Positions 810-27,114 of a stretch of 54,294 nt of DNA are shown here, piece by piece; position 1 is the first letter of the stretch, and every line of letters begins with the position of its first letter. The notes beneath the pieces were generated by a model, which was not told where the DNA came from, did no database searches, and worked only from the letters and a program-made list of their open reading frames with translations. Both the position numbers and the translations under genes were made by a program. The DNA lies in IMG/VR virus record IMGVR_UViG_3300033153_010346, positions 1-54,294 of that record. The stretch is one strand, 5' to 3'. The stretch comes from a virus.

Positions 810-1042
810 TGCCAAGAAATATGAACTTGGTATTGACGGAAGGCCTAATGCAAATAATTGATCTTGAAGATATAAATTATAGGTGGGTGTCAGTCATAGG
901 TGGGAATACTACGTTCTATCTCTTCTGTGTGGGTATAACCAGACTTCAAGGCTATAAGAAAGACAATGATGACATCCCTTATACTGCTGTGGCTTTTTGG
1001 GCTAAGACCTTGGATCGGTTGGAAGCAGGGAAATTACCTTGA
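809..1042 (+). CDS. Small early-family protein (77 aa)
   Basis: The ATG shares a base with the upstream stop. The product has a short N-terminal beta region, then a hydrophobic segment near residues 31-45 (TTFYLFCVGITRLQGY) and a C-terminal amphipathic, acidic/basic helix. This matches the shared layout of the small-gene run. It overlaps the next gene by four bases, consistent with one polycistronic message. Function unknown. Confidence 0.6.
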   Translation: MPRNMNLVLTEGLMQIIDLEDINYRWVSVIGGNTTFYLFCVGITRLQGYKKDNDDIPYTAVAFWAKTLDRLEAGKLP

Positions 1043-1335
1043 TATACAAATCCTTAATCACGCTCTTATTCTTGGTTTCCTGTTCTGACCCTAAACCAGT
1101 AATAGTAGAATATTACAATTGTGCGGACAGTACAAAATTTGTTCTAACCAAGCAAACTACTTATGCTGGAGTTAGAAAACGGGTAGGTGGATCTAAATTT
1201 GGGTATTTTTATGTATCTGCAGGAATTGAGATTGAGAAATGGCCGGATTCCTTTTGGTTGCCAGAGACAGAAAGGGGATATGAATTTGAGGACTCTATTT
1301 TGATTATTGTGAGGTGGCATTGTGAGACTCGTTGA
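1039..1335 (+). CDS. Small lipoprotein (98 aa)
   Basis: Starts at TTG 1039. Residues 3-15 form a hydrophobic signal segment ending in LVSC, a good lipobox with the acceptor cysteine at residue 15, directly followed by SDPKP. This predicts cleavage by signal peptidase II and attachment to a membrane. The mature part is beta-rich and carries no recognised domain. Phage lipoproteins often act in superinfection exclusion; that role here is only an inference. It overlaps both neighbouring genes by a few bases. Confidence 0.65.
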   Translation: MIYKSLITLLFLVSCSDPKPVIVEYYNCADSTKFVLTKQTTYAGVRKRVGGSKFGYFYVSAGIEIEKWPDSFWLPETERGYEFEDSILIIVRWHCETR

Positions 1336-3612: not shown

Positions 3613-3695
3613 GCTCCCGTGGCGGAATTGGCAGACGCGCTAGTCTTAGGAACTAGTCTTTCGGGGTGTAGGTTCGAGTCCTACCGGGAGTACCA
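3613..3695 (+). tRNA. trnL: tRNA-Leu (TAG)
   Basis: Seven-pair acceptor stem with a G-U first pair, A73 and an encoded CCA. The D-arm reads GGCGGAATTGG as in classic leucine tRNAs. The anticodon loop is CTTAGGA (anticodon TAG, reading CUA), with a long class II variable arm and T-loop TTCGAGT. It is the only leucine tRNA of the three here with the normal long variable arm. Confidence 0.97.
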
Positions 3696-3713
3696 AAAAT
3701 TTAAGGCAAGGTT

Positions 3714-3941
3714 ATGGAAGAGAAAAAAGAACGTAAGGACTTAAGACCCCTTTGGCTTTCAGCAACAGTTATGAGTTATTTGTTGGCCGGATGGATTTTA
3801 ATTGATGCTATTGTATCCCTCTCTTTATTTACAGGGTTTTTTGTGATTCCTCTTCTTGGTTTGGCTGTTTGGTGTAATAGAATTGCCGTTAATGAATGTG
3901 ATTATTGGTATAACAAAAGTAGCAGTAACAAATATTGGTAA
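3714..3941 (+). CDS. Small membrane protein, two predicted segments (75 aa)
   Basis: ATG start after AAGGCAAGG. A charged N-terminus (EEKKERKD) precedes two hydrophobic segments at about residues 13-34 and 37-55 with a short turn, then a polar, lysine/asparagine end. This predicts a hairpin membrane protein of the host inner membrane. It could be holin-like by shape, but it lies in the tRNA region away from the endolysin, so no function is proposed. Confidence 0.6.
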   Translation: MEEKKERKDLRPLWLSATVMSYLLAGWILIDAIVSLSLFTGFFVIPLLGLAVWCNRIAVNECDYWYNKSSSNKYW

Positions 3942-3950
3942 GGAGTGGTT

Positions 3951-4289
3951 GTGAGGATTGATAAGGATTATGTCAATGAAATGTGTCGAAGAGAAAAGTT
4001 TGATGCTTCTTATGGCGATTATGTAGTTTATCAACATCCAGATGGTTATTACATTGCCAGATTAGATATTGATACATTCCATCCTTTAGGTAATTTGGTT
4101 TGGCCTACTGATGAACTTGTAAACCATGGTATAAATGATGCGATGCCAAATAGTTGTTATGTTGAACGAAAAGGTGGAACTTGGGATGAAGCTAATGACA
4201 AAATGTGTGAAGTTCTTCAAAAACTAACAATACAAAATTATCAAGAATATGTGACTTATAAACCTGTAGACCGTAAACCATACAGATGA
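3951..4289 (+). CDS. Hypothetical protein (112 aa)
   Basis: Start chosen at GTG 3951, six bases after AAGGAG; GTG 3945 is too close to the same site. The product is acidic, aromatic-rich and without membrane segments; tyrosine and histidine are frequent (DGYYIARLDIDTFHPLG). It ends four bases before a tRNA-Leu gene. No domain is recognised. Confidence 0.6.
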   Translation: MRIDKDYVNEMCRREKFDASYGDYVVYQHPDGYYIARLDIDTFHPLGNLVWPTDELVNHGINDAMPNSCYVERKGGTWDEANDKMCEVLQKLTIQNYQEYVTYKPVDRKPYR

Positions 4290-4292
4290 TAA

Positions 4293-4367
4293 GGAAGCGT
4301 GAAGGGAATTGGTATACCTCTTTGTTTCAAACACAAAGGCTTGGTGGTTCGACTCCACCCGCTTCTA
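4293..4367 (+). tRNA. trnL: tRNA-Leu (CAA), short variable arm
   Basis: Acceptor GGAAGCG pairs with CGCTTCT (G-U first pair), A73, no encoded CCA. The anticodon stem TTTGT/ACAAA encloses TTCAAAC, giving anticodon CAA. The D-loop GAATTGGTA is leucine-like. The variable region is only about five bases, whereas leucine tRNAs normally carry a long arm. Anticodon and A73 support leucine; the missing arm is the odd point. Confidence 0.85.
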
Positions 4368-4376
4368 TAAGATTAC

Positions 4377-4389
4377 AGGTGTACATAGC
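4377..4389 (+). repeat. Inverted repeat, left copy (13 bp)
   Basis: AGGTGTACATAGC at 4377-4389 is the exact reverse complement of GCTATGTACACCT at 4777-4789. The two copies bracket one small gene (4412-4762) between a leucine and a cysteine tRNA gene. Confidence 0.75.
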
Positions 4390-4411
4390 TAGGTAGGAAG
4401 TGAGATTAGTT

Positions 4412-4762
4412 ATGTATCTTAAGATTATAGACAATCTAGGTAATATCAAAATGTATGAAGGGAAGGAGATTTATTTTTATCGTTATGAATCCCAATTTGG
4501 GAGTGACCCCATAACGGAAGAAGTAACTGATAGTGATGAATGGTATTTAGTATTATCCATTGAAATAGACGGTAAAACACTAAAACCTATTCAAACTAAC
4601 CAACGTGTTACAAAATGGAGTAGTGAGATAGAAAGTGTTTTAAATGGACGTGTTGTTGAAGAGAAATGTTCAAAGTGTGAATACACATGCGACCCATCAG
4701 TAAAACAATCGCGTGTTTTCATAATGAATGACGACGGCAACACAATAGAAAAAATAATGTAG
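4412..4762 (+). CDS. Hypothetical protein with C-terminal CxxC (116 aa)
   Basis: Start chosen at ATG 4412, about eight bases after GGAAGTGAG; GTG 4400 would sit on top of that site. The product is strand-rich and acidic, with a single CSKC followed by a further cysteine near residues 86-94, possibly an incomplete metal site. It is bracketed by a perfect 13-base inverted repeat, so it may be a small inserted cassette. Function unknown. Confidence 0.6.
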   Translation: MYLKIIDNLGNIKMYEGKEIYFYRYESQFGSDPITEEVTDSDEWYLVLSIEIDGKTLKPIQTNQRVTKWSSEIESVLNGRVVEEKCSKCEYTCDPSVKQSRVFIMNDDGNTIEKIM

Positions 4763-4776
4763 CCTAAAATAACTTG

Positions 4777-4789
4777 GCTATGTACACCT
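4777..4789 (-). repeat. Inverted repeat, right copy (13 bp)
   Basis: Partner of the 4377-4389 copy, lying 14 bases after the stop of the bracketed gene and 8 bases before tRNA-Cys. In the transcript the two copies could pair and enclose the whole gene. Confidence 0.75.
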
Positions 4790-4797
4790 AAAATTAT

Positions 4798-4872
4798 GAG
4801 CCAGTAGCCAAATGGCAAGGCAGGTGGTTGCAACCCATCGATGTGGGGGTTCAAGTCCCTCCTGGCTCTCCA
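4798..4872 (+). tRNA. trnC: tRNA-Cys (GCA)
   Basis: Acceptor GAGCCAG/CTGGCTC, discriminator U73 (the cysteine identity base) and encoded CCA. Anticodon loop TTGCAAC gives GCA. Regular class I cloverleaf with T-loop TTCAAGT. Confidence 0.95.
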
Positions 4873-4877
4873 AACTT

Positions 4878-4952
4878 GGGACTGTGACGGGAATTGGTAT
4901 ACCTACTTGGCTTAAAACCAAGTGTCTCTGAGTTCGACTCTCAGCGGTCCTA
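4878..4952 (+). tRNA. trnL: tRNA-Leu (TAA), short variable arm
   Basis: Acceptor GGGACTG/CGGTCCT with a G-U first pair, A73 and no encoded CCA. Stem CTTGG/CCAAG encloses CTTAAAA (anticodon TAA, reading UUA). The D-arm is nearly identical to that of the CAA tRNA at 4293. The variable region is about five bases rather than a long arm. The two genes look like duplicates with changed anticodons. Confidence 0.85.
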
Positions 4953-4965
4953 TTAAACAGAGGTT

Positions 4966-5235
4966 ATGGGAATGAGGCAAAACGAGAAAACATTTGAGAA
5001 GTTGTTTGAAACCGAAACACGTTATCAAATATACCCTCGAAACTGGTACTGCTTTGACCTAGGTATAGGGGACCATACTCTACTAATGCCAAGAGTTTCC
5101 CATAACCCCTTATTTATGTTGTTTATCGCGGCATCGGCATTTAAAGGTTGGGGGAGGTTCATAAGCATGGGCTCAAACCTTACTAGAAAATTTGCCCTCG
5201 TATCGGCTCTGGCTTCTAACCAGGAGAAACCGTAA
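4966..5235 (+). CDS. Small early-family protein whose end overlaps a tRNA (89 aa)
   Basis: ATG start after CAGAGG. Strand-rich N-terminus, then NPLFMLFIAASAFKGW at about residues 45-60 and a basic helix (NLTRKF), the same pattern as the genes at 1322, 2810 and 3093. The last 14 codons run into the atypical tRNA gene at 5194-5273, so the original C-terminus may have been replaced when a tRNA sequence was placed here, or the stop lies inside the RNA gene by chance. Confidence 0.5.
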   Translation: MGMRQNEKTFEKLFETETRYQIYPRNWYCFDLGIGDHTLLMPRVSHNPLFMLFIAASAFKGWGRFISMGSNLTRKFALVSALASNQEKP

Positions 5236-5273
5236 CTGGACACATGTGGGTTCGACTCCTACCGAGGGTACCA
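5194..5273 (+). tRNA. Atypical tRNA-Arg (TCT?) lacking a D-arm
   Basis: Acceptor GCCCTCG/CGAGGGT (G-U first pair), A73, encoded CCA and a regular T-arm (GTGGG/CCTAC, loop TTCGACT) are clear. The anticodon-like hairpin TCTGG/CCAGG has loop CTTCTAA, anticodon TCT. Only seven bases separate acceptor and this stem, so there is no D-arm, and the variable region is about 21 bases. It may be a degenerate gene or a non-canonical tRNA. Confidence 0.55.
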
Positions 5274-5289
5274 AATTTAGGAATTCTTC

Positions 5290-5469
5290 GTGGAACAAAA
5301 AGAACGAACGAAAGCCTTAAAACAACGTATTAAGTCTCTTGAGAGGACACTGGCACATACCACTAATCTGTTAGCAATCTTCAATGTTGACGAACCTGAT
5401 GCAAAAAAACATAGTGCCGTGGATTTTCAAGTGGAGAAAAACAGGTCTTTACTAGACCGTAAGATATAG
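5290..5469 (+). CDS. Small helical protein, GTG start (59 aa)
   Basis: GTG 5290 lies seven bases after TAGGA. The product is highly charged (QKERTKALKQRIKSLERT in the first 20 residues), probably a helix or coiled coil, and has no hydrophobic segment. It fills the gap between two tRNA genes and its stop overlaps the first two bases of tRNA-Gln. No family recognised. Confidence 0.5.
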   Translation: MEQKERTKALKQRIKSLERTLAHTTNLLAIFNVDEPDAKKHSAVDFQVEKNRSLLDRKI

Positions 5470-5541
5470 CCAGATCGTCCAATGTTAGGACATTGGGCTT
5501 TGAACCCAAGAATGTAGGTTAGACTCCTGCTCTGGCTGCCA
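5468..5541 (+). tRNA. trnQ: tRNA-Gln (TTG)
   Basis: Acceptor AGCCAGA/TCTGGCT, G73 and encoded CCA. Stem TTGGG/CCCAA with loop CTTTGAA gives anticodon TTG. The T-loop is TTAGACT, with A instead of the near-universal C56. Fold otherwise standard. Confidence 0.94.
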
Positions 5542-5594
5542 AATATTTGTTTGTAACCCTTCGTGGTTACTTTACACGGTCTAAGAAATCGTGA

Positions 5595-5670
5595 GGCGCA
5601 ATCGTATAATGGTTTATTATACCCGGTTGTCTCCCGGAAGATCAGGGTTCGATTCCCTGTTGTGCCGCCA
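5595..5670 (+). tRNA. trnD: tRNA-Asp (GTC)
   Basis: Acceptor GGCGCAA/TTGTGCC, G73 (aspartate identity base) and encoded CCA. Anticodon loop TTGTCTC gives GTC; the outermost anticodon-stem pair is a C-A mismatch. T-arm AGGG/CCCT with TTCGATT. Confidence 0.92.
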
Positions 5671-5751
5671 AATTGCTCTTGCATGATCAACTTATGGATA
5701 CTTGCTATATTTAGCACGCTTTGAGCATAGATAGTTCTATAAACGAACAAT

Positions 5752-5824
5752 GGTCTCGTAGCTCAATTGGCAGAGCACCTGTGTTACATACAGGATGTTG
5801 ATGGTTCGATTCCATCCGAGACTA
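5752..5824 (+). tRNA. trnV: tRNA-Val (TAC)
   Basis: Acceptor GGTCTCG/CGAGACT with a G-U first pair, A73, no encoded CCA. Standard D-arm (GCTCAATTGGCAGAGC), anticodon stem CCTGT/ACAGG with loop GTTACAT (TAC), T-arm GATGG/CCATC. Confidence 0.95.
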
Positions 5825-5827
5825 TAT

Positions 5828-5903
5828 GGCTCTGTAGCTCAGACAGTAGAGCATGCGGTTGAAGCCCGCAGTGTCGTGGGTGCAATTCCTACCGGGGCCA
5901 CCA
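5828..5903 (+). tRNA. trnF: tRNA-Phe (GAA)
   Basis: Acceptor GGCTCTG/CGGGGCC, A73 and encoded CCA. Stem TGCGG/CCGCA with loop TTGAAGC gives GAA. The T-loop is TGCAATT: G replaces the conserved U55, a change also seen in the His and Ile(GAT) tRNAs of this array. Confidence 0.94.
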
Positions 5904-5911
5904 TAAATTTA

Positions 5912-5996
5912 GGAAGGTCGCATTGGTGTGCTTATCTGGTTTGAACCCAGTGATGTCCTCACGGATGTGGGGGTTCGACTCCCTCACCTTCCTCCA
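5912..5996 (+). tRNA. trnS: tRNA-Ser (TGA)
   Basis: Class II tRNA: acceptor GGAAGGT/ACCTTCC, loop TTTGAAC (anticodon TGA) and a long variable arm containing TCCTCACGGA. CCA is encoded; the discriminator is T instead of the usual G. The variable arm is almost identical to that of tRNA-Ser(GCT) at 6233. Confidence 0.92.
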
Positions 5997-6010
5997 AATC
6001 ACTCAGAGGG
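5996..6010 (+). repeat. Direct repeat, left copy (15 bp)
   Basis: AAATCACTCAGAGGG here matches 6224-6238 (AAATCACTCAGAAGG) with one mismatch. The right copy includes the first six bases of tRNA-Ser(GCT). The two copies flank the cysteine-rich gene 6018-6242. Confidence 0.6.
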
Positions 6011-6017
6011 TATAAAT

Positions 6018-6242
6018 ATGAGTTTTTGTACATGTGATCTAAAAGTTGGTGTCACAACATGTGATGTTTGTCATGGAGATATAACTTTATCAAAACCGTG
6101 TATTTTTTGTGAAAACTCAGTAACAGTTGCAAGGGGTATCATGTTTCATGGTGTAGGCATAACAAAAGAATCTGCACAGACATATTTATGTTCCCATATT
6201 ACTTGTTACAAAAACTATAGTAAAAATCACTCAGAAGGTTGA
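6018..6242 (+). CDS. Cysteine-rich small protein (74 aa)
   Basis: Start chosen at ATG 6018, after a CAGAGGG site; a longer frame would begin inside tRNA-Ser(TGA). The product has CTC near residue 4, CDVC at about 15-18, CIFC at about 28-31 and two further cysteines with a histidine near 60-65. This suggests two small zinc-ribbon sites. The stop lies ten bases inside tRNA-Ser(GCT). Partner and function are unknown. Confidence 0.6.
   Translation: MSFCTCDLKVGVTTCDVCHGDITLSKPCIFCENSVTVARGIMFHGVGITKESAQTYLCSHITCYKNYSKNHSEG
6224..6238 (+). repeat. Direct repeat, right copy (15 bp)
   Basis: Partner of 5996-6010; one mismatch. It spans the end of the cysteine-rich gene and the 5' end of tRNA-Ser(GCT). 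Confidence 0.6.
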
Positions 6243-6320
6243 CAGAGTGGCAATGTGCTGGGTTGCTAACCCAAGGCCGTCCTCACGGATGCATTGGTTC
6301 AATCCCAATACCTTCTGCCA
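6233..6320 (+). tRNA. trnS: tRNA-Ser (GCT)
   Basis: Class II tRNA with acceptor AGAAGGT/ACCTTCT, G73 (serine identity base) and encoded CCA. Stem TGGG/CCCA with loop TTGCTAA gives GCT. Long variable arm shared with tRNA-Ser(TGA). T-loop TTCAATC. Confidence 0.95.
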
Positions 6321-6335
6321 AATTAGGTATTAACT

Positions 6336-6743
6336 ATGTTGGAAAAACTCATGAAACGATGGAAAGAAATAATTTTCATATTTTCGGTTGTAGCTATAGC
6401 CTTTACATTTAATGGTTATCGGATAGAAGCTGAGGAAACTGCCACTAAGGTAAAGAAGTTTGAAGAGACATTTGACAAAATTGCGCAGATTGCAGATGAC
6501 CTCAAGAATCCAAATATATGGCTTCGAAATTATTTGGTAAATCATGGTGTAGATTCTGTAGTTGCGAAGTCTTGGAGTAATATCCCAAGAGGGCCTGTTA
6601 TGACTAAGAGTGATACAACGGTTAATATCCCCTACCTCGAAGCTGATGTTTTGCCAGACATAGGGGTCCAAAAGGTGCGCAAATCAAACGGCGCTACCAA
6701 AATCATGGACACCCTGTGGAATTTCTCAAAAAAGGCGAAATAA
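6336..6743 (+). CDS. Membrane-anchored protein, single N-terminal segment (135 aa)
   Basis: ATG after TTAGG. A basic start (KLMKRWK) is followed by one hydrophobic segment at about residues 12-26 (IIFIFSVVAIAFTF) and then a long polar, partly coiled-coil region. This predicts a type II anchored protein with the main part outside the cytoplasm, or an uncleaved signal. The motif-bearing promoter at 6749 begins just after its stop. Function unknown. Confidence 0.6.
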   Translation: MLEKLMKRWKEIIFIFSVVAIAFTFNGYRIEAEETATKVKKFEETFDKIAQIADDLKNPNIWLRNYLVNHGVDSVVAKSWSNIPRGPVMTKSDTTVNIPYLEADVLPDIGVQKVRKSNGATKIMDTLWNFSKKAK

Positions 6744-6748
6744 CTCAG

Positions 6749-6783
6749 AACCTTTTTCGATTTCCGGTGTTATACATATACAG
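6749..6783 (+). promoter_or_regulatory. Putative phage promoter upstream of tRNA-Met
   Basis: CTTTTTCGATTTCC followed by GTGTTATA (6767-6774) and ACATATACAG. This is nearly identical to the minus-strand copy at 31848-31815 (TTTTTTCGATTTCCT then GTGTTATA). The first downstream element is tRNA-Met at 6788, so transcription would begin at the edge of a tRNA block. Confidence 0.55.
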
Positions 6784-6787
6784 ATCA

Positions 6788-6863
6788 TGCGGGTAGCAGG
6801 GCTGGTGTCCTGGTCGGTCTCATAAGCCGATGGCGAAGGGTTCGATTCCCTTGCCCGCAACCA
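6788..6863 (+). tRNA. trnM: tRNA-Met (CAT)
   Basis: Acceptor TGCGGGT/GCCCGCA with a U-A first pair, A73 and encoded CCA. Stem TCGGT/GCCGA with loop CTCATAA gives anticodon CAT. The paired 1-72 position argues against an initiator. A lysidine-modified Ile2 tRNA would have the same anticodon and cannot be excluded. Confidence 0.9.
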
Positions 6864-6881
6864 AATTTAGAGGAGAAAGAA

Positions 6882-7208
6882 ATGGAAGCAACTGTAAACG
6901 AACTATTGGTATTGAAAAACACTTTACAAACCCGTAAAGCCGAAGTGCAGTCTTTGCTACGTTTGTGTGTTGCTCGTCGTGTTAACGAAGTAAGATACGA
7001 AGAAGAAGTTCGTAAAACTATTGATGAAAGCCGTTACGACCCTAATGATCTAGAGATTCGTAACACTGAGCTAAGCACTGCACTTTTCGAGCTAGATCGG
7101 GCAATCAAAGTGGCTAATGCCAAAACTGTTGTCAACGTAGAAAACGTAGACATTGCTACTTTGCTAGCACCTGTAAAACCCCGTCCTTGGGTTGAAACTC
7201 AAGAATAA
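6882..7208 (+). CDS. Helical hypothetical protein (108 aa)
   Basis: ATG five bases after AGAGGAGAAAG, a strong ribosome site. Mostly helical with heptad-like leucines (NELLVLKNTLQTRKAEVQ), two basic clusters and a short proline-rich acidic end. It has a small-phage-protein look without a named domain. It lies directly upstream of a structured RNA region. Function unknown. Confidence 0.6.
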   Translation: MEATVNELLVLKNTLQTRKAEVQSLLRLCVARRVNEVRYEEEVRKTIDESRYDPNDLEIRNTELSTALFELDRAIKVANAKTVVNVENVDIATLLAPVKPRPWVETQE

Positions 7209-7470
7209 GGGGAGCATGAGTAAATAGCTAGCCGAAAGCTTTGGCTGTTAACAGTTCGGGGCGAGTAGGCGAAAAGGAAAAAACTTGTTGAGTATATTGG
7301 TATCCCCAATATGACACTAGCTGTGTTGTTACAGCCTCCTTTAATAAGGTAAACTATAGTGCCCGTAAACCCATACTTAATAACCATTAAGGTTATTGGT
7401 AGTTGAATAAGACGGGTCAAGTCATGTTGTTTGTTTTTGTTAGTTGTTGTTCTTCAACAAATTTTTCTCT
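7209..7470 (+). ncRNA. Candidate structured non-coding RNA with own terminator
   Basis: No convincing reading frame, but many perfectly paired helices: 7294-7300/7306-7312, 7320-7324/7331-7335, 7338-7341/7346-7349, 7379-7385/7391-7397. These are enclosed by 7315-7319/7357-7361 and 7362-7366/7412-7416, with 7283-7287/7418-7422 closing the whole. The hairpin 7444-7449/7455-7460 followed by ATTTTTCT looks like a terminator. It is not recognised as tmRNA, RNase P RNA or a known riboswitch. Confidence 0.5.
7444..7466 (+). terminator. Rho-independent terminator-like hairpin
   Basis: TTGTTG pairs with CAACAA around a five-base loop and is followed by ATTTTTCTCT. The stem is AT-rich, so the terminator would be weak. 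It closes the structured region 7209-7470 before tRNA-Arg. Confidence 0.45.
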
Positions 7471-7488
7471 GCTATTTGCTCTTTATAT

Positions 7489-7561
7489 TCCTTCGTCGTC
7501 TAATTGGAGAGGACATTTGGCTACGAACCAAAAAATGCGGGTTCGATTCCTGTCGAGGGGA
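7489..7561 (+). tRNA. trnR: tRNA-Arg (ACG)
   Basis: Acceptor TCCTTCG/CGAGGGG with two wobble pairs (U-G first), A73, no encoded CCA. Stem TTTGG/CCAAA with loop CTACGAA gives ACG, which would be deaminated to ICG to read CGU/C/A. T-loop TTCGATT. Confidence 0.92.
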
Positions 7562-7580
7562 TTTACATAAAGGGTAATAT

Positions 7581-7892
7581 ATGACCACAGTAAATAAAAG
7601 GAAATATTGGCGGGAGATAAAGAGAAAGAATCGGGCGCGGAATCGTAAGTTTATTTTTGAATATCTAAGTGATCATCCATGTGTTGATTGCCCAGAAGCT
7701 GACCCAATAGTATTAGAATTTGATCACGTAAGAGGTGAAAAGCTAGATACAATAAGTAACCTAGCAGTAAGATACACAGCAAGTCTGAAAAAGATTAAAG
7801 AAGAGATAGAGAAGTGTGAGGTTCGATGTGCGAATTGTCACAGACGCAGACATGCTAAGTTGTTGAAAGAAAAGAATAGATCGATGGTGTAG
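7581..7892 (+). CDS. HNH endonuclease (103 aa)
   Basis: Small HNH nuclease. The first zinc pair is C34/C37; the catalytic strand carries EFDHV (D48-H49), and the second pair C83/C86 is followed by H87 and H91 (CANCHRRRH). The N-terminus is strongly basic. Such stand-alone enzymes cut DNA and often behave as homing endonucleases in phages. The last 15 bases, including the stop, lie inside tRNA-Trp, so the gene is wedged against the tRNA. Confidence 0.85.
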   Translation: MTTVNKRKYWREIKRKNRARNRKFIFEYLSDHPCVDCPEADPIVLEFDHVRGEKLDTISNLAVRYTASLKKIKEEIEKCEVRCANCHRRRHAKLLKEKNRSMV

Positions 7893-7951
7893 TGACAACA
7901 TCTCTGGCTCCAAACCAGAGGACCAGGGTTTGATTCCTTGTCGGTCTGCCA
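7878..7951 (+). tRNA. trnW: tRNA-Trp (CCA)
   Basis: Acceptor AGATCGA/TCGGTCT, G73 (tryptophan identity base), encoded CCA. Stem TCTGG/CCAGA with loop CTCCAAA gives CCA. T-loop TTTGATT with U in place of C56. The HNH gene ends inside its 5' half. Confidence 0.94.
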
Positions 7952-7955
7952 AATT

Positions 7956-8159
7956 ATGAGCTACATTGGACCTGAAGGTATTAGGAGAAAAAGTGTTACT
8001 CCTTTGAATGTAAAGAGATTAACCTTTTCCAAGTATATGTACAAAGCCGAGTGTGGTAGTTGTTGTACAGTCCACAAGTTTAATCCAAGTGGAATAACCC
8101 CCTCATTTGTGTGTGATATATGCGGGACAAAAAATGTAGCAAACTTTACAATCATGTAA
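7956..8159 (+). CDS. Zinc-ribbon protein (67 aa)
   Basis: Start chosen at ATG 7956, five bases after tRNA-Trp; the longer frame would begin within the tRNA. The product has CGSCC at about residues 29-33 and CDICG at about 51-55, the two knuckles of a small zinc ribbon. No ribosome site precedes the ATG. It ends one base before the tRNA-Ala gene. Confidence 0.55.
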   Translation: MSYIGPEGIRRKSVTPLNVKRLTFSKYMYKAECGSCCTVHKFNPSGITPSFVCDICGTKNVANFTIM

Positions 8160-8160
8160 T

Positions 8161-8232
8161 GGGGTGCGTACTGGGGTACAGGAAGCTTTTGCAAGGCATC
8201 CCGGCTGGGTTCGATTCCCAGGCCCTCCACCA
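8161..8232 (+). tRNA. trnA: tRNA-Ala (TGC), degenerate anticodon stem
   Basis: Acceptor GGGGTGC/GCCCTCC with the G3-U70 pair that defines alanine tRNAs, A73 and encoded CCA; there is a U-C mismatch at pair 5-68. The D-arm is a GTAC/GTAC stem with a TGGG loop. The loop TTTGCAA gives TGC, but the anticodon stem has only three to four pairs. T-arm CTGGG/CCCAG. Confidence 0.75.
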
Positions 8233-8237
8233 AATAT

Positions 8238-8310
8238 GAGGTGCGGATTGAAGTCCGAGAATCTCTTAACAGGGAACTCTTGCTGGGTTCGACTCCCAGG
8301 CACCTCCCCA
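8238..8310 (+). tRNA. tRNA of undetermined identity (non-canonical anticodon arm)
   Basis: Perfect acceptor GAGGTGC/GCACCTC, T-arm CTGGG/CCCAG with TTCGACT, C73 and encoded CCA. A D-like hairpin CGGA-TTGAAG-TCCG is seen. The anticodon region has no stable five-pair stem; spacing puts AAC at 34-36 with only three pairs. It may be a decayed gene or a non-canonical tRNA, related in style to the tRNA-like RNAs just downstream. Confidence 0.6.
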
Positions 8311-8314
8311 AATG

Positions 8315-8385
8315 GGCCTATTCGTCTAGTGGAAGGATATCTGACTTTCTATCAGATGGCGAGGGTTCGATTCCCTCATAGGCTA
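8315..8385 (+). tRNA. trnE: tRNA-Glu (TTC)
   Basis: Acceptor GGCCTAT/ATAGGCT with a G-U first pair, A73, no complete CCA. Stem TCTGA/TCAGA with loop CTTTCTA gives TTC. T-arm GAGGG/CCCTC with TTCGATT. Confidence 0.94.
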
Positions 8386-8394
8386 CAAAGATTT

Positions 8395-8469
8395 GCCTCC
8401 ATAGCTCAATGGTAGAGCCAGAGTTTTGTAAACTCTAGGTTGTGGGTTCGACTCCTACTGGGGGCTCCA
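8395..8469 (+). tRNA. trnT: tRNA-Thr (TGT)
   Basis: Acceptor GCCTCCA/TGGGGGC, encoded CCA; the discriminator is T. Standard D-arm, stem AGAGT/ACTCT with loop TTTGTAA (TGT), T-arm GTGGG/CCTAC. Confidence 0.94.
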
Positions 8470-8473
8470 AGGA

Positions 8474-8520
8474 GTGGCGGGCGGAAAGACCGTGTAAAGG
8501 GTGAAAATCCCTACCGTCAC
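8474..8520 (+). ncRNA. Anticodon-less tRNA-like RNA, copy 1
   Basis: A seven-pair outer helix (8474-8480/8514-8520), a hairpin CGG-AAAGA-CCG (8482-8492), then a T-arm-like hairpin GGG-TGAAAAT-CCC (8499-8511). There is no room for D and anticodon arms; total 47 nt. It contains the box GGAAAGACCGTG found identically in copy 3. Neither a coding frame nor an encoded CCA is present. Confidence 0.5.
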
Positions 8521-8533
8521 ACAGAATGGAACT

Positions 8534-8585
8534 GCGTTATGGACCAGAAAGACTGTGCATTGGGTGCAAATCCCTGCTATGACGC
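8534..8585 (+). ncRNA. Anticodon-less tRNA-like RNA, copy 2
   Basis: Outer helix GCGTTAT/ATGACGC, extendable to ten pairs (8531-8540/8579-8588). Hairpin CAG-AAAGA-CTG (8545-8555), then GGG-TGCAAAT-CCC (8562-8574) flanked by a further GCA/TGC pairing. The order and loops equal copy 1, and the base changes are compensatory (CGG/CCG to CAG/CTG), which supports a selected structure. Confidence 0.5.
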
Positions 8586-8596
8586 GGTTTATAAAT

Positions 8597-8707
8597 GGTA
8601 GGTAGGAAAGACCGTGGACGGAGTTGACGTTTTAACTCGTATAACGGGTTAGTCAGAACTTGGCGATCCCAAGAAGTCTTCTGGAGTGGTGAGAATCCAC
8701 ACCTACC
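8597..8707 (+). ncRNA. tRNA-like RNA, copy 3 with internal insertion
   Basis: Outer helix GGTAGGT/ACCTACC (8597-8603/8701-8707), the box GGAAAGACCGTG (8605-8616) and the T-arm-like hairpin GTGG-TGAGAAT-CCAC (8686-8700). About 70 bases between them form extra hairpins, such as GAGTT/AACTC (8621-8638) and CTTGG/CCAAG (8660-8674). This copy is followed by ACC rather than CCA. Confidence 0.45.
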
Positions 8708-8718
8708 ACCGACAATTA

Positions 8719-8793
8719 GCTAGGATAGTGTTAGCAGTAGCACGTCTGGTTGTGGGCCAGAAAGGCTTGGTGCAAGTCCAGGTCCTAGTACCA
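8719..8793 (+). tRNA. trnH: tRNA-His (GTG)
   Basis: Acceptor GCTAGGA/TCCTAGT with a G-U first pair, A73, encoded CCA. Stem TCTGG/CCAGA with loop TTGTGGG gives GTG. The usual histidine features, an extra G at -1 opposite C73, are absent. T-loop TGCAAGT with G55. Confidence 0.9.
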
Positions 8794-8818
8794 ATAAATG
8801 TAGTAAGGAGAAAACAGA

Positions 8819-9361
8819 ATGAATGTAATGGTGGATTTGGAAACCATGGGAGTAGACGATTCAGCGGCTATTGTTTCAATCGGGGCTGTTGAATTTAACA
8901 AGGATAAGATAGGTTCGGAGTTTTATCGTAACATCACCTTGTACTCTAATCAAAGTCGAGGTAGAACGTACACACCTAGTACAATCGAATGGTGGCTTAA
9001 ACAAGACAAGGCGGCTCAGGAAGGTTTGTTCAATCCTACACCTGTTGATCTCTTAACTGCTTTGAAAGACTTCCAGAAGTATGTAACTGGGGTGTTAAGT
9101 AAGAATGATGGTATGTGGGCAAATGGAGTAACATTTGATCTAATTATCCTAAGCCATGCCTTTAAAGCCATGAATGTGAAAAAACCTTGGCATTTCCGAA
9201 ATGAGTGTTGCGTTAGACCACTACGTAAGATTGGTTACTTGGTTGGCCTGAAATATGAAGATTATTATGGAGAAGGTGTAGCTCACAACGCTTTGGACGA
9301 TGCGAAGCTACAAGCGAAATTTGTTCAAGATTTTATTCGTAAAATGGAGAGCAATAAATAA
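8819..9361 (+). CDS. DEDDh 3'-5' exonuclease (DexA/RNase T type)
   Basis: 180 residues, start at ATG eight bases after AAGGAG. The DEDDh catalytic set is complete: D6 and E8 in VDLETMG, D107 in VTFDLI, H156 and D161 in HNALDDA. The length and the MVDLETMG start resemble T4 DexA and other phage exonucleases that degrade DNA or RNA from the 3' end. A role in nucleotide recycling or end processing is likely. A function in maturing the adjacent tRNAs, in the manner of RNase T, is possible but only inferred from position. Confidence 0.88.
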   Translation: MNVMVDLETMGVDDSAAIVSIGAVEFNKDKIGSEFYRNITLYSNQSRGRTYTPSTIEWWLKQDKAAQEGLFNPTPVDLLTALKDFQKYVTGVLSKNDGMWANGVTFDLIILSHAFKAMNVKKPWHFRNECCVRPLRKIGYLVGLKYEDYYGEGVAHNALDDAKLQAKFVQDFIRKMESNK

Positions 9362-9370
9362 GGAGTTTTT

Positions 9371-9760
9371 ATGAAGACATTGTTAACCCTTCTGGCCGCT
9401 CTGATTCTCATTGGTGGAGTTTTTAGTGAGTCAGTTCAAGCACAATTTTATGACTTGGATGGTCAGCTTAGTTTGACATGGACAGCCCCGAACCCGGCTA
9501 CCAATCCACCTCTGAAAGATTACATTGTGACTTATTACACGTTTGATTATGGCACTAGTGTGTATGATACATCCCAAGTAGCTACTACAAACGTATTTGA
9601 TTCAACAGTTAATCTCGTGAGTCAAGGAAGCTGGTGTTATGCTGAATTGCAATCAAGAGATTATCTGGATAGGGTTTCATCTGTAGTTGTTAGTGATACG
9701 GCTTATTACGACGCAGGTATTGGCATTGACCCCCCGACGGGGCCAACTTGGACACAATAG
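9371..9760 (+). CDS. Secreted FnIII-like protein, likely joined by -1 frameshift to the next frame
   Basis: ATG after AAGGAG. Residues 1-24 are a clear Sec signal peptide (LLTLLAALILIGGV, cleavage after VQA). The rest (about 30-110) resembles a fibronectin type III domain (LTWTAPNP..., YIVTYYTF, WCYAELQSRD). Near the end the C-run at 9730-9735 forms the slippery heptamer C CCC CCG. A -1 shift there leads into the 9748 frame, which is open from 9730, and gives a product of about 212 residues ending in a type IX sorting domain. Without shifting, a 129-residue periplasmic protein results. Confidence 0.75.
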   Translation: MKTLLTLLAALILIGGVFSESVQAQFYDLDGQLSLTWTAPNPATNPPLKDYIVTYYTFDYGTSVYDTSQVATTNVFDSTVNLVSQGSWCYAELQSRDYLDRVSSVVVSDTAYYDAGIGIDPPTGPTWTQ

Positions 9761-9766
9761 GCCTTT
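9730..9766 (+). promoter_or_regulatory. Putative -1 ribosomal frameshift signal
   Basis: Slippery sequence C CCC CCG (9730-9736) in the reading frame of the secreted protein. It is followed closely by a possible hairpin in which 9739-9744 (GGGGCC) pairs with 9760-9765 (GGCCTT). A single missing C in the assembly would have the same effect, so error and recoding cannot be told apart from sequence alone. Confidence 0.45.
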
Positions 9767-10008
9767 TCCTACAAGTTGTGCCCAATCCTAACGATGGCGG
9801 ATTTAAGTTATATGTCAATCTCCCTTTCAAAGAGAGTTATCAAATAACTTTCTACAATATAATAGGGGCAGTAAGATTAGAAGAATTTATAAAAGGAAAA
9901 GGTCGTCATGTTATCAACTACAAACTTTCTTGGCCTTCGGGCATTTACCTTGCTTGTGTGCAGAATTCTTATATGCATGTTTGTACTAAGTTCGTTCTCG
10001 TTCAGTGA
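9730..10008 (+). CDS. Type IX secretion C-terminal sorting domain (frameshift product or separate TTG-start gene)
   Basis: This frame is open from 9730; its only independent start is a TTG at 9748. From about residue 11 of the TTG version it follows the type A sorting domain of type IX substrates: VVPNPNDGGF, hydrophobic strands, ITFYNIIGAV, GRHVINYKL, SGIYLACV and a final basic/hydrophobic strand. Such domains are found at the C-terminus of proteins moved across the outer membrane of Bacteroidota and are not functional alone without a signal peptide, so fusion to the upstream frame makes sense. Confidence 0.75.
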   Translation, partial: PPDGANLDTIGLFLQVVPNPNDGGFKLYVNLPFKESYQITFYNIIGAVRLEEFIKGKGRHVINYKLSWPSGIYLACVQNSYMHVCTKFVLVQ

Positions 10009-10321
10009 GGTAGTTATTGAAGGTGATTATCTAAAATGGATAGCTGTAGGAGATGACGATAATTATGGAACCGCGACGAAGTATGACATAAGGTATTCTA
10101 CAGAGAACCTTGCGAACTGGGAGTTGGGAGATGTACTACTGACCGCCCCAACCCCCTCGCAGTCAGGAATGAGGGACAGTGCTTACATTGATCTTATTCC
10201 TGGTGCTTATTACTTTTGTATCAGGGTTAGAGACGAAGTGTGGAACTGGTCACTATGGTCTAACGTTGTGATGAAAGATTCAAGACAAATTGAACCGCCT
10301 TATTTAGTGGAGTGGGAATAA
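9908..10321 (+). CDS. Second secreted FnIII-like protein (137 aa)
   Basis: ATG 9908 follows GGAAAAGG, so it is translated although it overlaps the sorting-domain frame by 101 bases. Residues 10-33 are hydrophobic and end in a small-residue region, a signal peptide. The mature part resembles one fibronectin type III domain as found in Bacteroidota (GDDDNYGTATKYDIRYST, then YYFCIRVRDEVWNWSLWSN). No sorting domain follows, so it would remain periplasmic or be released. It may work with the upstream secreted protein. Confidence 0.7.
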   Translation: MLSTTNFLGLRAFTLLVCRILICMFVLSSFSFSEVVIEGDYLKWIAVGDDDNYGTATKYDIRYSTENLANWELGDVLLTAPTPSQSGMRDSAYIDLIPGAYYFCIRVRDEVWNWSLWSNVVMKDSRQIEPPYLVEWE

Positions 10322-10566
10322 TGGCTAAGAAAATCAGACAAAGTGTAAATCGTGATATGGCTACTAAAGCTAAGTCTATGATACTTACTATTTGGTGTGG
10401 TTATCTTGAGAAAGAAGTAACTGTTGAAGTTGATACTAATTATAGCGTTTTTGGTGGGATTTCAGTAAGAGGCCATATATGTGAGTGTACCTGTGACTAT
10501 GCTGTAAACTTTGAATTCACATGCGAGTGTGGACACAAACACGAAATAAGACTGTATGAATCCTAG
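10321..10566 (+). CDS. Cysteine-rich zinc-binding protein (81 aa)
   Basis: Start chosen at ATG 10321, sharing a base with the upstream stop; GGAG lies about ten bases before. A basic N-terminus (KKIRQSVNRD) precedes a strand-rich part with CECTC at about residues 54-58 and CECGHKH at about 68-74, together one zinc site. The stop overlaps the first base of tRNA-Asn. Function unknown. Confidence 0.6.
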   Translation: MAKKIRQSVNRDMATKAKSMILTIWCGYLEKEVTVEVDTNYSVFGGISVRGHICECTCDYAVNFEFTCECGHKHEIRLYES

Positions 10567-10639
10567 GCTCTTTAGCTCAATGGTAGAGCGATTGGCTGTT
10601 AACCATTTGACAAAGGTTCGATTCCTTTAGGAGCCTCCA
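10566..10639 (+). tRNA. trnN: tRNA-Asn (GTT)
   Basis: Acceptor GGCTCTT/AGGAGCC, encoded CCA, discriminator T. Loop CTGTTAA gives GTT; the anticodon stem has one U-U mismatch. T-loop TTCGATT. Confidence 0.93.
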
Positions 10640-10644
10640 AATTT

Positions 10645-10721
10645 GCGCCTATAACTCAACTAGGTAGAGTAGCAGGCTTTTAACCTGAAAGTTCAAGGTT
10701 CGATTCCTTGTGGGCGCACCA
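10645..10721 (+). tRNA. trnK: tRNA-Lys (TTT)
   Basis: Acceptor GCGCCTA/TGGGCGC, A73, encoded CCA. Stem CAGG/CCTG with loop CTTTTAA gives TTT. T-arm CAAGG/CCTTG with TTCGATT. Confidence 0.95.
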
Positions 10722-10727
10722 AATTAA

Positions 10728-10815
10728 GGGTTGGTAAGCATAGTGGCGAATGCCCCTGACTGTAGATCAGGTACCCAAGCGGTGAACATCGTAGGTTCGA
10801 CTCCTACCCAACCCA
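10728..10815 (+). tRNA. trnY: tRNA-Tyr (GTA)
   Basis: Class II tRNA with acceptor GGGTTGG/CCAACCC, A73, no encoded CCA. Stem CCTGA/TCAGG with loop CTGTAGA gives GTA. Long variable arm, T-arm GTAGG/CCTAC. Confidence 0.95.
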
Positions 10816-10831
10816 TTAAATAGGAGAATAT

Positions 10832-11377
10832 ATGGCAGCGGAACGACAATTTGAGCTTGATTCACACCATTTGCTTAGATACAACTTTGCTATGTCACAT
10901 TGTTTTGGTAGTGTGTTAGACATTGCTTGTGGCTATGGGGAAGGTTCTAACATGTTGTCTACATCAACTAAGATAACAAACGTTGTTGGTGTAGATATAG
11001 CACAAGATGTAGTAGATGTTGCAAGTAAACGATATCCTAATATCATTTTTGAATGTGCTAACTTATTAAACTATAAAGGACAATTTGACTCAGTAGTTAG
11101 CTTTGAAACAGTTGAGCATATTAAAGATTTCAAAAAAACAAAGCAACAATTAAAAAGTCTACTTAAACCAAAAGGGTTATTAATTTTTTCAGTGCCCGCT
11201 AACGAATCAGAAGGAACCAACCCGCATCATGTTGTGTGGGATCTAACACAAAATGATTTTGAGGAATTTTCCGAATGTCATTTTTTTCATCAAACCTCAA
11301 ATTTTCTTATAAAAGAAACGTTTGATGAAGTAAGCAGTGTAATTTATAACCTTATTGGAATATATATTAACAAGTAA
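10832..11377 (+). CDS. Class I SAM-dependent methyltransferase (181 aa)
   Basis: ATG seven bases after AGGAGA. The Rossmann-fold methyltransferase motifs are clear: motif I VLDIACGYGEGSNML at about residues 28-42, acidic end of strand 2 in VVGVDIA, motif with CANLLNY, then DSVVSFETVEHI and GLLIFSVP. This is the Methyltransf_11/UbiG-type fold. The substrate cannot be told from sequence. Its position between tRNA-Tyr and tRNA-Ile (which starts at the next base) makes tRNA or a sugar possible targets, as inference only. Confidence 0.85.
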   Translation: MAAERQFELDSHHLLRYNFAMSHCFGSVLDIACGYGEGSNMLSTSTKITNVVGVDIAQDVVDVASKRYPNIIFECANLLNYKGQFDSVVSFETVEHIKDFKKTKQQLKSLLKPKGLLIFSVPANESEGTNPHHVVWDLTQNDFEEFSECHFFHQTSNFLIKETFDEVSSVIYNLIGIYINK

Positions 11378-11453
11378 CGTGCAGTAGCTCAGTGAGTAGA
11401 GCACTTGTCTGATACACAAGCGGCCGGTGGTGCAAATCCATCCTGCACGACCA
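11378..11453 (+). tRNA. trnI: tRNA-Ile (GAT)
   Basis: Acceptor CGTGCAG/CTGCACG, A73, encoded CCA. Stem CTTGT/ACAAG with loop CTGATAC gives GAT. T-loop TGCAAAT with G55. It begins one base after the methyltransferase stop. Confidence 0.94.
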
Positions 11454-11458
11454 AATAA

Positions 11459-11534
11459 GCCCCAGTGGTGTTAATGATTAGCATGACAGCCTTCCAAGCT
11501 GACGGTCAGGGTTTGAATCCCTGTTGGGGCTCCA
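11459..11534 (+). tRNA. trnG: tRNA-Gly (TCC)
   Basis: Acceptor GCCCCAG/TTGGGGC, U73 (glycine identity base), encoded CCA. Stem CAGC/GCTG with loop CTTCCAA gives TCC. T-loop TTTGAAT with U at 56. Confidence 0.94.
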
Positions 11535-11572
11535 AAATTATTAGTTAATCCCCTCTGTCTGAGGACTTTGGG

Positions 11573-11605
11573 CGTCCATCAAGTTGGTGCACTTACTAGG
11601 TGGAC
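11573..11605 (+). other. Hairpin upstream of small gene
   Basis: GTCCATC pairs with GGTGGAC and an inner AAGT/ACTT helix caps it. It lies in the leader between tRNA-Gly and the gene at 11626. It could be a processing or translation-control element; nothing more can be said. Confidence 0.3.
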
Positions 11606-11625
11606 ACTAAAATTAGAGGTAGGAA

Positions 11626-11823
11626 ATGCCTAAACCAAAACCTGACGAAAAACGGGATGAATTTCTACCTAGATGTATGGATAGTCCTGAAATGAAGAGT
11701 GAGTACCCAACCAACACTAAACAACGGTATGCGGTTTGTGTTGGTATTTGGAAAACCCATTTGAAAAGAAAGCGTAAAAGTGATATCGAGGAAGAGACTA
11801 GAGAGGGCAAATCAAATAGCTGA
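11626..11823 (+). CDS. Small conserved phage protein (65 aa)
   Basis: ATG after AGAGGTAGGAA. The N-terminal pattern KPDEKRDEFLPRCMDS...M...YP...QRYAVCVGIW recalls a short motif seen in many phage proteins, often near structural genes (RCM, then AVC and W). The C-terminus is very basic and then acidic. It likely binds nucleic acid or protein, but the role is unknown. It overlaps the next gene by 44 bases. Confidence 0.65.
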   Translation: MPKPKPDEKRDEFLPRCMDSPEMKSEYPTNTKQRYAVCVGIWKTHLKRKRKSDIEEETREGKSNS

Positions 11824-12094
11824 ACGTACATACACTCAATACCATTATGGTAACTTTTATCGATACAACCATGACAACCCTAATGTCATTCATGATATTT
11901 TTGGATTCAGGCATGAATTGGTGGATCTTAAATCGTTGGGGATGTATCGTAAAACCAGGGTATATCGTTGGCAGACAAGGAGTAAGGAATGGTACAAGGC
12001 CAATTGGGCTACAGCTTGGGGAACGAAAACACGCCAACAGTTACGTGCAGATGAAAATTTACGGGAACAAATTCGAGAAACTGGTGTTATATAA
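11780..12094 (+). CDS. Basic aromatic-rich hypothetical protein (104 aa)
   Basis: GTG start inside the previous gene. The product is rich in arginine, tyrosine and tryptophan (YRKTRVYRWQTRSKEWYKAN), suggesting a nucleic-acid-binding surface. Another frame (11847-12098) is also open but has less phage-like composition. The end overlaps the promoter-like motif at 12067. No family recognised. Confidence 0.5.
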   Translation: MISRKRLERANQIAERTYTQYHYGNFYRYNHDNPNVIHDIFGFRHELVDLKSLGMYRKTRVYRWQTRSKEWYKANWATAWGTKTRQQLRADENLREQIRETGVI

Positions 12095-12102
12095 GTAGGA
12101 GG
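12067..12102 (+). promoter_or_regulatory. Possible phage promoter (GTGTTATA motif)
   Basis: ATTCGAGAAACTG then GTGTTATA (12084-12091), and AGGAGG five bases later. The spacing from motif to ribosome site equals that at 2508-2526. It lies inside the end of a gene, so it could be coincidental. Confidence 0.35.
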
Positions 12103-12106
12103 ATTT

Positions 12107-12430
12107 ATGCATAGGCTCTGGCTGATTGTGCTGATTGTTATGGTTTGCGCCATTATAGCTTTAGCTACACCAGAAAGAGAAGTAGACCTCTCAAAGGCAG
12201 ATATTCATTACCTGCAGATTGAACTAGCAGACAGCACTAAGATCAACCTAGCGACCCTTCTGAGCTTAGAAATGCCGGAAGGTGATACAATTACCCTTAT
12301 GATAGCTGTTGATGAAAACGGTGATTGTGAAGTAGCTGATATTATATCAACGCGAGAAACCAGTGCTGTAGAAGTCTGGTGTGATTTCCTTGATGAATTA
12401 ACACGAATTATAAAAGAATGTAAAAAATAA
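12107..12430 (+). CDS. Secreted or anchored small protein (107 aa)
   Basis: ATG five bases after AGGAGG, the best ribosome site in this area. Residues 4-20 are a signal peptide or anchor (LWLIVLIVMVCAIIALA). The mature part is acidic and strand-rich (HYLQIELADSTKINLATLL) with two cysteines that could form a disulphide. It ends directly at tRNA-Pro. It is the fourth exported product of the plus-strand region. Confidence 0.6.
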   Translation: MHRLWLIVLIVMVCAIIALATPEREVDLSKADIHYLQIELADSTKINLATLLSLEMPEGDTITLMIAVDENGDCEVADIISTRETSAVEVWCDFLDELTRIIKECKK

Positions 12431-12506
12431 CGGAGTGTAGGAAAGAGGATATCCACTTGGTTTGGGACCAAGTATAACGCTGGTTCGAATCCAGCCACTC
12501 CGACCA
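12431..12506 (+). tRNA. trnP: tRNA-Pro (TGG)
   Basis: Acceptor CGGAGTG/CACTCCG, A73, encoded CCA. Stem CTTGG/CCAAG with loop TTTGGGA gives TGG. T-loop TTCGAAT. Confidence 0.95.
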
Positions 12507-12520
12507 AATTAGGGGTTGTT

Positions 12521-12616
12521 ATGCTAATTATCAAACTCGAAAAATGGGAAGACGGACAACTTCTTCCTGTGAGTCAACAAGAGATCGATAAGCTTATAGA
12601 AGCTATTGGGCAGTAA
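12521..12616 (+). CDS. Tiny protein between tRNA genes (31 aa)
   Basis: ATG after an AGGGG site, 14 bases behind tRNA-Pro; the last ten bases overlap tRNA-Ile. The sequence is soluble and helical (SQQEIDKLIEAIGQ). It is typical of the short cassettes in this array, and the ribosome site is the only support. Confidence 0.4.
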   Translation: MLIIKLEKWEDGQLLPVSQQEIDKLIEAIGQ

Positions 12617-12682
12617 CTCAAGTGGTAGAGACCGTGCCTTATATGCACGTAGTTACAGGTTCGAGTCCTGTCTGCCCAACCA
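12607..12682 (+). tRNA. trnI: tRNA-Ile (TAT)
   Basis: Acceptor TGGGCAG/CTGCCCA, A73, encoded CCA. Stem CGTGC/GCACG with loop CTTATAT gives TAT, reading AUA without lysidine modification. T-arm ACAGG/CCTGT. Confidence 0.93.
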
Positions 12683-14925: not shown

Positions 14926-15441
14926 TTAGAATGTGAACAAATCTAATCTAGCCCCTACATAATAAAGGTCTTTTTGGCCACCGCTGAGAATAACTACCAT
15001 GTTTTCATTTGAAAGCATGAAGTTCCATAAGCTAATACCAAAAGAAGCCTTAAAACTAGGTAGTGTTGTGTTTCCTTCCACGGAGTTGACTACTTGCCAT
15101 CCACCAATACCAAATTCTGCAAACGCTCGATCAAAAATCCAAGCACCCGTCGAGTCCCCTAATTTACGATGTAGAACACCGTACAAAGTAAGAGCTTGTA
15201 AGTCTTGAATTTCTTCAAACCCACGGTCACTAAATAAGATACCAGGGACAGTCATAAAAATTGACTTGTCATCTTTAGAAGTAACTGTAGGTACATTCAG
15301 CACCATATGGAAAGCCAGCTCAGTAGAGTGGCCTTTTTGCATCAAGACACCGGCACCCAAGCCATAAATTGATTCGGCTTGGGCTGATGTTACGATTAGT
15401 CCTGTCATAACGATAAGAGTTATAAGTAGTTTCTTAAACAT
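14926..15441 (-). CDS. Secreted, possibly outer-membrane beta-barrel protein (171 aa)
   Basis: Residues 1-22 are a good signal peptide (KKLLITLIVMTGLIVTSAQA). The mature part alternates polar and hydrophobic residues over many short strands and ends in phenylalanine (LDLFTF), as in outer-membrane barrels. An eight-stranded barrel placed in the host outer membrane is plausible, for example to block superinfection; this is inference. No named family recognised. Confidence 0.55.
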   Translation of the reverse strand: MFKKLLITLIVMTGLIVTSAQAESIYGLGAGVLMQKGHSTELAFHMVLNVPTVTSKDDKSIFMTVPGILFSDRGFEEIQDLQALTLYGVLHRKLGDSTGAWIFDRAFAEFGIGGWQVVNSVEGNTTLPSFKASFGISLWNFMLSNENMVVILSGGQKDLYYVGARLDLFTF

Positions 15442-26615: not shown

Positions 26616-26827
26616 TAATATGTTCCTTCTTTAATTCGTTGTATGGAGTCTATATTGATATTTTCTTTAGCAAAAGGTAGAAAAAATACTCCGTCCAATT
26701 GCAAAAAATATCTCATAATAGTTGAGTATCTTTCATCCCTACTCTTTGGGGTGTCAAATGATTCAACTAAAAGAGTCCCATCTTTAAGCATCATACTTAT
26801 TTTGTAGTCCAAGATAAGATCAGTCAT
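26615..26827 (-). CDS. Hypothetical protein (70 aa)
   Basis: Small soluble, acidic protein with strand-like N-terminus (LILDYKISMMLKDGTLLVE) and no recognised motif. It overlaps both neighbours by a few bases, so it belongs to the glycan operon transcript. Confidence 0.55.
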   Translation of the reverse strand: MTDLILDYKISMMLKDGTLLVESFDTPKSRDERYSTIMRYFLQLDGVFFLPFAKENINIDSIQRIKEGTY

Positions 26828-27113: not shown

Positions 27114-27114
27114 T

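What the first reader, a model, noticed from the sequence alone, without database searches (positions are those of the whole stretch)
9371..10008. Phage-encoded type IX secretion sorting domain, probably attached by a -1 frameshift
Seen: a gene with a clear signal peptide and FnIII-like domain (9371-9760) stops 28 bases after the slippery heptamer C CCC CCG (9730-9736). The -1 frame is open from 9730 to 10008 and encodes a typical type A sorting domain (PNPNDGGF ... GIYLACV ... FVLVQ). A possible stimulatory hairpin (9739-9744/9760-9765) follows. Known: such domains sit at the C-terminus of proteins exported across the outer membrane by the Bacteroidota type IX system, and need a signal peptide first. 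Inference: ribosomes make two products, a periplasmic form (129 aa) and a form displayed or released by the host type IX machinery (about 212 aa). A phage hijacking this route to coat or seal the infected cell would be new to me.
Basis: partly seen in the sequence, partly recalled or inferred. Interest (0 to 1): 0.85.

Follow-up and report, generated by a model that had tools for sequence, protein, structure and literature searches.

The report
Phage surface-export tag in shifted frame
A bacterial virus carries a small exported protein whose "display me outside the cell" tag lies in a shifted reading frame; the tag is real and of a kind already known in phages, but whether ribosomes slip to attach it or the frame break is just an insertion/deletion cannot be decided from this single sequence.

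Summary
In a 54 kb IMG/VR phage contig, ORF 9371-9760 (signal peptide plus a seven-strand domain) is followed, one frame back, by a 90-residue stretch that passes the curated cut-offs of both type IX secretion (T9SS) type A sorting-domain models (TIGR04183, PF18962) and whose model resembles the solved CTD 8glk_D. Codon usage switches frame at the C6 run, so both halves look coding. The heptamer C_CCC_CCG (9730-9736) is in register. It is stronger than at any of 48 other in-frame slippery sites in the contig, and only 0.2% of synonymous recodings fold as well. Local dinucleotide shuffles give only z = -1.1, and the spacer is short (3 nt).

No relative of this gene was found. A related 118 kb phage has only an untagged signal-peptide/fn3 protein, homologous to the next gene here. 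So ribosomal frameshifting (about 0.42) cannot be separated from an assembly or genuine indel in the C-run (about 0.40). Phage-encoded T9SS cargo is already published, so the route is not new; a frameshift-attached tag would be. Shine-Dalgarno use makes the assumed Bacteroidota host uncertain.

The parts
9360..9365 (+). Shine-Dalgarno AAGGAG of the first gene
   Evidence: sequence
9371..9442 (+). signal peptide MKTLLTLLAALILIGGVFSESVQA, cleavage likely before Q25
   Evidence: hydropathy profile and A-x-A-like motif by inspection; no signal-peptide program was available
9371..9760 (+). frame-0 ORF, 129 aa: signal peptide plus seven-strand beta domain, stop TAG 9758-9760
9730..9736 (+). slippery heptamer C_CCC_CCG, in register with frame 0
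   Evidence: sequence; motif listed above 0.10% -1 frameshifting in E. coli without stimulator in PMC4066793
9740..9783 (+). downstream hairpin: 9740-9743/9780-9783, 9744-9750/9772-9778, inner helix 9758-9761/9768-9771; -17.9 to -18.2 kcal/mol
9736..10008 (+). -1 frame continuation (90 aa after the slip; fusion 212 aa)
9778..9996 (+). T9SS type A sorting domain (PNPNDGGF ... GIYLACV ... KFVLVQ)
   Evidence: TIGR04183 and PF18962 above cut-off; AF2 model pLDDT 76.8, seven strands, matches 8glk_D
9908..10321 (+). second signal-peptide/fn3-type gene; coding signal becomes clear only from about 9971, so the start may be 9908 (ATG, with SD-like AAAAGGAAAAGG) or 9950/9956 (TTG/GTG); overlaps the sorting-domain frame
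   Evidence: (homologue in a relative, E 2e-5)

Best explanation
The locus encodes a phage-made cargo of the host type IX secretion system. A Sec signal peptide takes a small beta domain to the periplasm, and a C-terminal type A sorting domain would pass it to the T9SS translocon for release or attachment at the cell surface. Most likely the sorting domain is added to only part of the product by -1 ribosomal slippage at C_CCC_CCG in front of a strong hairpin, giving an untagged 129-aa periplasmic form and a tagged 212-aa exported form. Shown: the sorting domain, its frame, codon usage of both halves, the heptamer and the hairpin's predicted stability. Inferred: the slip, the export and any role at the surface (possibly superinfection exclusion or adhesion). 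The T9SS-cargo part alone I hold at about 0.8; the confidence below is for the whole statement including the slip.
For: Both sorting-domain profiles pass their curated cut-offs. The structural model of the 90 aa matches 8glk_D, the NucA substrate chain in a type 9 secretion complex (prob 1.00, E 2.5e-3, TMt 0.68), and sequence finds the same chain first (E 0.015). Codon usage switches from frame 0 to -1 at the C-run. C_CC.C_CC.G is among motifs with more than 0.10% frameshifting in E. coli without stimulator and is under-represented in genes (PMC4066793). The hairpin beats all 48 other in-frame slippery sites in the contig; synonymous recoding z -3.2, 0.2% as stable. The slip falls in the linker after the beta domain. 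No frame break shows among 50 ORFs compared with the relative G001.
Against: No relative keeps the arrangement: gene-specific scans of viral contigs found nothing, and G001-G003 lack the domain. The heptamer has a heterogeneous A-site codon (CCG), a weaker class in E. coli. The spacer is 3 nt, shorter than the usual 5-9 (own knowledge). Local dinucleotide shuffles give only z -1.1. C6 is an indel hotspot. The host, and so its T9SS, is unknown.
Confidence: 0.42

Rival explanations
1. It is one ordinary uninterrupted gene for a T9SS cargo; the break is an assembly or sequencing indel, or a recent real indel, in the C6 run of this contig.
For: C6 is one of only three C6/G6 runs in 54 kb, where indels concentrate; the arrangement is a singleton, and singletons with frame breaks are mostly errors or indel mutations in a large survey (PMC3711429); both halves retain normal codon usage, as expected for a very recent or artefactual break.
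Against: No other frame break in 50 ORFs comparable with G001; the run lies in the one register that makes a slippery heptamer; the strongest hairpin of any slippery site in the contig follows.
Confidence: 0.4
2. The C-run is a genuine on/off switch: replication slippage between C6 and C7 alternates untagged and tagged protein across phage progeny (phase variation), or the tag has been recently switched off by mutation and is decaying.
For: Homopolymer in the linker of a surface-type gene; phase variation favours surface proteins (PMC3711429).
Against: Six is short for a phase-variable tract (own knowledge); no decay visible in the tag.
Confidence: 0.12
3. Two separate genes: the tag frame starts on its own (TTG 9748) by reinitiation near the frame-0 stop.
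For: A TTG start lies 10 nt before the stop codon.
Against: The product would lack a signal peptide and so could not reach T9SS; it would have no domain besides the tag.
Confidence: 0.05

Closest known systems
Cryophage T9SS-A cargo genes (endoglucanase, GH39, PA14; PMC7468147)
   Same: phage genes carrying a type A sorting domain, proposed to use the host's T9SS; superinfection exclusion suggested there
   Different: those carry recognisable catalytic or PA14 domains and no frameshift is mentioned in the passages read; here the cargo is a small beta domain with the tag in another frame
crAss-BACON phage ORF with T9SS sorting domain (PMC6949934)
   Same: phage-encoded sorting domain together with a carbohydrate-binding-type domain
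   Different: BACON repeats, described as one ORF near the head gene section; here in a tRNA cluster and split between frames
T9SS type A CTD (TIGR04183/PF18962), structure 8glk_D
   Same: motifs PNP..G.F, GIY, K.VLV; seven-strand sandwich; C-terminal position
   Different: encoded out of frame with the signal peptide
Bacterial -1 programmed frameshifting (dnaX, IS elements)
   Same: in-register X_XXZ_ZZN heptamer and downstream hairpin
   Different: weak C_CCC_CCG motif, 3-nt spacer, no conservation evidence, product gains an export signal

Membership tests
T9SS type A sorting domain | match to TIGR04183 / PF18962 above curated cut-off | tested here: met
   29.2 vs 23 bits; 29.3 vs 27 bits
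T9SS type A sorting domain | beta-sandwich fold like solved CTDs | tested here: met
   model pLDDT 76.8, seven strands; 8glk_D rank 2, prob 1.00, TMt 0.68; DUF3244 proteins match equally well, so the fold alone is not specific
T9SS type A sorting domain | extreme C-terminus of the reading frame | tested here: met
   PF18962 match ends 3 residues before the stop at 10006-10008
T9SS cargo protein | Sec signal peptide on the same polypeptide | tested here: inconclusive
   signal peptide is clear by inspection but in another frame; needs slip or indel
T9SS cargo protein | host encodes a T9SS | not testable with these tools
   no host found; both genome-contig scans empty
-1 programmed ribosomal frameshift | X_XXZ_ZZN heptamer in frame within the overlap | tested here: met
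   C_CCC_CCG 9730-9736; chance of any such heptamer 0.034
-1 programmed ribosomal frameshift | downstream stimulatory structure at proper spacing | tested here: inconclusive
   strong hairpin but 3-nt spacer and dinucleotide z -1.1
-1 programmed ribosomal frameshift | conserved in relatives | tested here: inconclusive
   no relative of the gene found
-1 programmed ribosomal frameshift | fusion product exists | not testable with these tools
   needs mass spectrometry or a reporter
Fibronectin type III | PF00041 match of 9371-9760 | tested here: not met
   no Pfam hit even at E<=10; relative G001 gene does match (26.3 vs 25 bits)

The most novel reading that the evidence does not exclude
A phage uses programmed -1 ribosomal frameshifting to attach a type IX secretion signal to a fraction of a periplasmic protein, so that ribosomal slippage sets the ratio between a periplasmic and a surface-exposed form. 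No example of a T9SS signal attached by frameshifting was found in the library searched.
Probability: 0.4. Interest if true: 0.72.

Novelty: new variant of a known kind. Interest (0 to 1): 0.45.

Why it matters
If the slip is real, a virus sets how much of one protein stays in the periplasm and how much reaches the cell surface by ribosomal frameshifting, a way of attaching a secretion signal that I could not find described for T9SS. If it is an indel, it is still a further phage-encoded T9SS cargo, supporting the view that phages of T9SS-bearing hosts remodel the infected cell's surface.

Tried and rejected
Close relatives of the tag, the beta domain and gene B in viral contigs: none. Terminase, capsid and DNA polymerase probes gave only three related contigs, one of 118 kb, none with the tag. 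The neighbouring exonuclease probe gave unrelated contexts. Host search through capsid and epimerase in GTDB genomes: nothing. tblastn of the tag, of the beta domain and of the 8glk CTD stretch in phage records: nothing. The family search over the own record with TIGR04183 missed the domain, while PF18962 found it, so absence in such searches is weak evidence. Fold search of the beta domain gave no significant match. One search used wrong coordinates and is ignored.

Full report
What is there. The window is an IMG/VR virus record of 54,294 bases with terminase, portal and DNA polymerase matches and 23 tRNA genes. Within the tRNA cluster, after a Rv2179c-like exonuclease gene (PF16473), ORF 9371-9760 encodes 129 aa with a strong Shine-Dalgarno sequence and a typical signal peptide. 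The -1 frame is open from 9730 to 10008.

The tag. The 90 residues of the -1 frame pass the curated cut-offs of TIGR04183 and PF18962. The closest solved sequence is 8glk_D, called Endonuclease I in the PDB sequence file (E 0.015) and described in the structure library as NucA substrate in a type 9 secretion complex. A single-sequence AlphaFold2 model (pLDDT 76.8, seven strands) finds the same chain at rank 2 (E 2.5e-3, TMt 0.68); DUF3244 sandwiches score similarly, so the fold alone is not specific but profile plus fold are. In BFVD, several matches are named 'Secretion system C-terminal sorting domain [uncultured Caudovirales phage]'.

The frame. Codon-usage log-odds computed from 47 other genes show frame 0 coding up to about 9727, the -1 frame coding from about 9731 to about 9970, and the second gene's frame from about 9971. 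So both halves look like working coding sequence and the switch falls at the C6 run. This fits a frameshift and a very recent or artefactual indel equally; it argues against an old pseudogene and against chance.

Frameshift or indel. For frameshifting: the run is in the one register giving X_XXZ_ZZN; any such heptamer would occur in an overlap this short with chance 0.034; C_CC.C_CC.G gave more than 0.10% -1 frameshifting in E. coli without stimulator, and is under-represented in genes (PMC4066793); the hairpin 9740-9783 is the strongest behind any of 49 in-frame slippery sites and only 0.2% of synonymous recodings are as stable. Against: no relative; CCG is a weaker A-site codon; 3-nt spacer; z only -1.1 against local dinucleotide shuffles; C6 is an indel hotspot; a survey found singletons mostly to be errors or indels (PMC3711429). 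No other frame break appears in 50 ORFs comparable with G001, which suggests a good assembly but cannot exclude one error. I judge 0.42 to 0.40, with phase variation at 0.12.

Relatives. Terminase probes found three related contigs. The 118 kb one, G001, is colinear through most of the window. In its tRNA cluster it has a 138-aa signal-peptide protein (33152-33568) with PF00041 fn3 above cut-off. It is homologous to the window's second gene 9908-10321 (E 2e-5), not detectably to the tagged one. So a small exported fn3-type protein recurs in this phage group and the tagged one is an addition seen only here.

Host. T9SS suggests Bacteroidota, but 28 of 58 examined candidate starts in the window (start sites partly alternative) have SD-like motifs against 8% background, whereas Bacteroidetes generally lack them (PMC6847099). 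Ignavibacteria, Fibrobacteria and Calditrichae are listed with SD use (PMC10783764), and T9SS has been suggested for Ignavibacteriae and Fibrobacteres (PMC5837995). The Q after the predicted cleavage site fits the Bacteroidetes Q-rule, also high in Ignavibacterium album, but the other signal peptides seen here are followed by E. The host is therefore open.

Verdict. A real phage-encoded T9SS sorting domain, a known kind. Its attachment by frameshifting is a plausible and testable new variant, not established.

Noticed in passing
window 14926-15441 (-): Signal-peptide protein (SAQA^E) that by eye resembles a small outer-membrane beta-barrel ending in F; no Pfam match. Could act at the host surface.
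   Followed up: partly
window 1039-1335 (+): Short protein with a lipoprotein-like signal (LLFLVSC^S); no Pfam match.
   Followed up: partly
window 20775-29178 (-): Sugar cluster: RmlD-like, dTDP-sugar isomerase/FdtA-like, UDP-GlcNAc 2-epimerase and several glycosyltransferases including a heptosyltransferase-type fusion.
   Followed up: partly
window 3613-12682: 23 tRNA genes; the relative G001 has 9.
   Followed up: no
window start codons: Frequent Shine-Dalgarno motifs (28 of 58 examined candidate starts, 8% background), at odds with a typical Bacteroidota host.
   Followed up: partly
window 21751-21757 (-): A second CCCCCCG, inside the gene 21614-22036, but not in the slippery register (by coordinates); serves as a natural contrast.
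   Followed up: partly
window 42150-45290 (+): 1046-aa tail protein (phrog_6079) made of many W(N/D)VK-type repeats.
   Followed up: no
L007:13152-13568: Relative phage G001 carries an untagged signal-peptide/fn3 protein in its tRNA cluster.
   Followed up: yes
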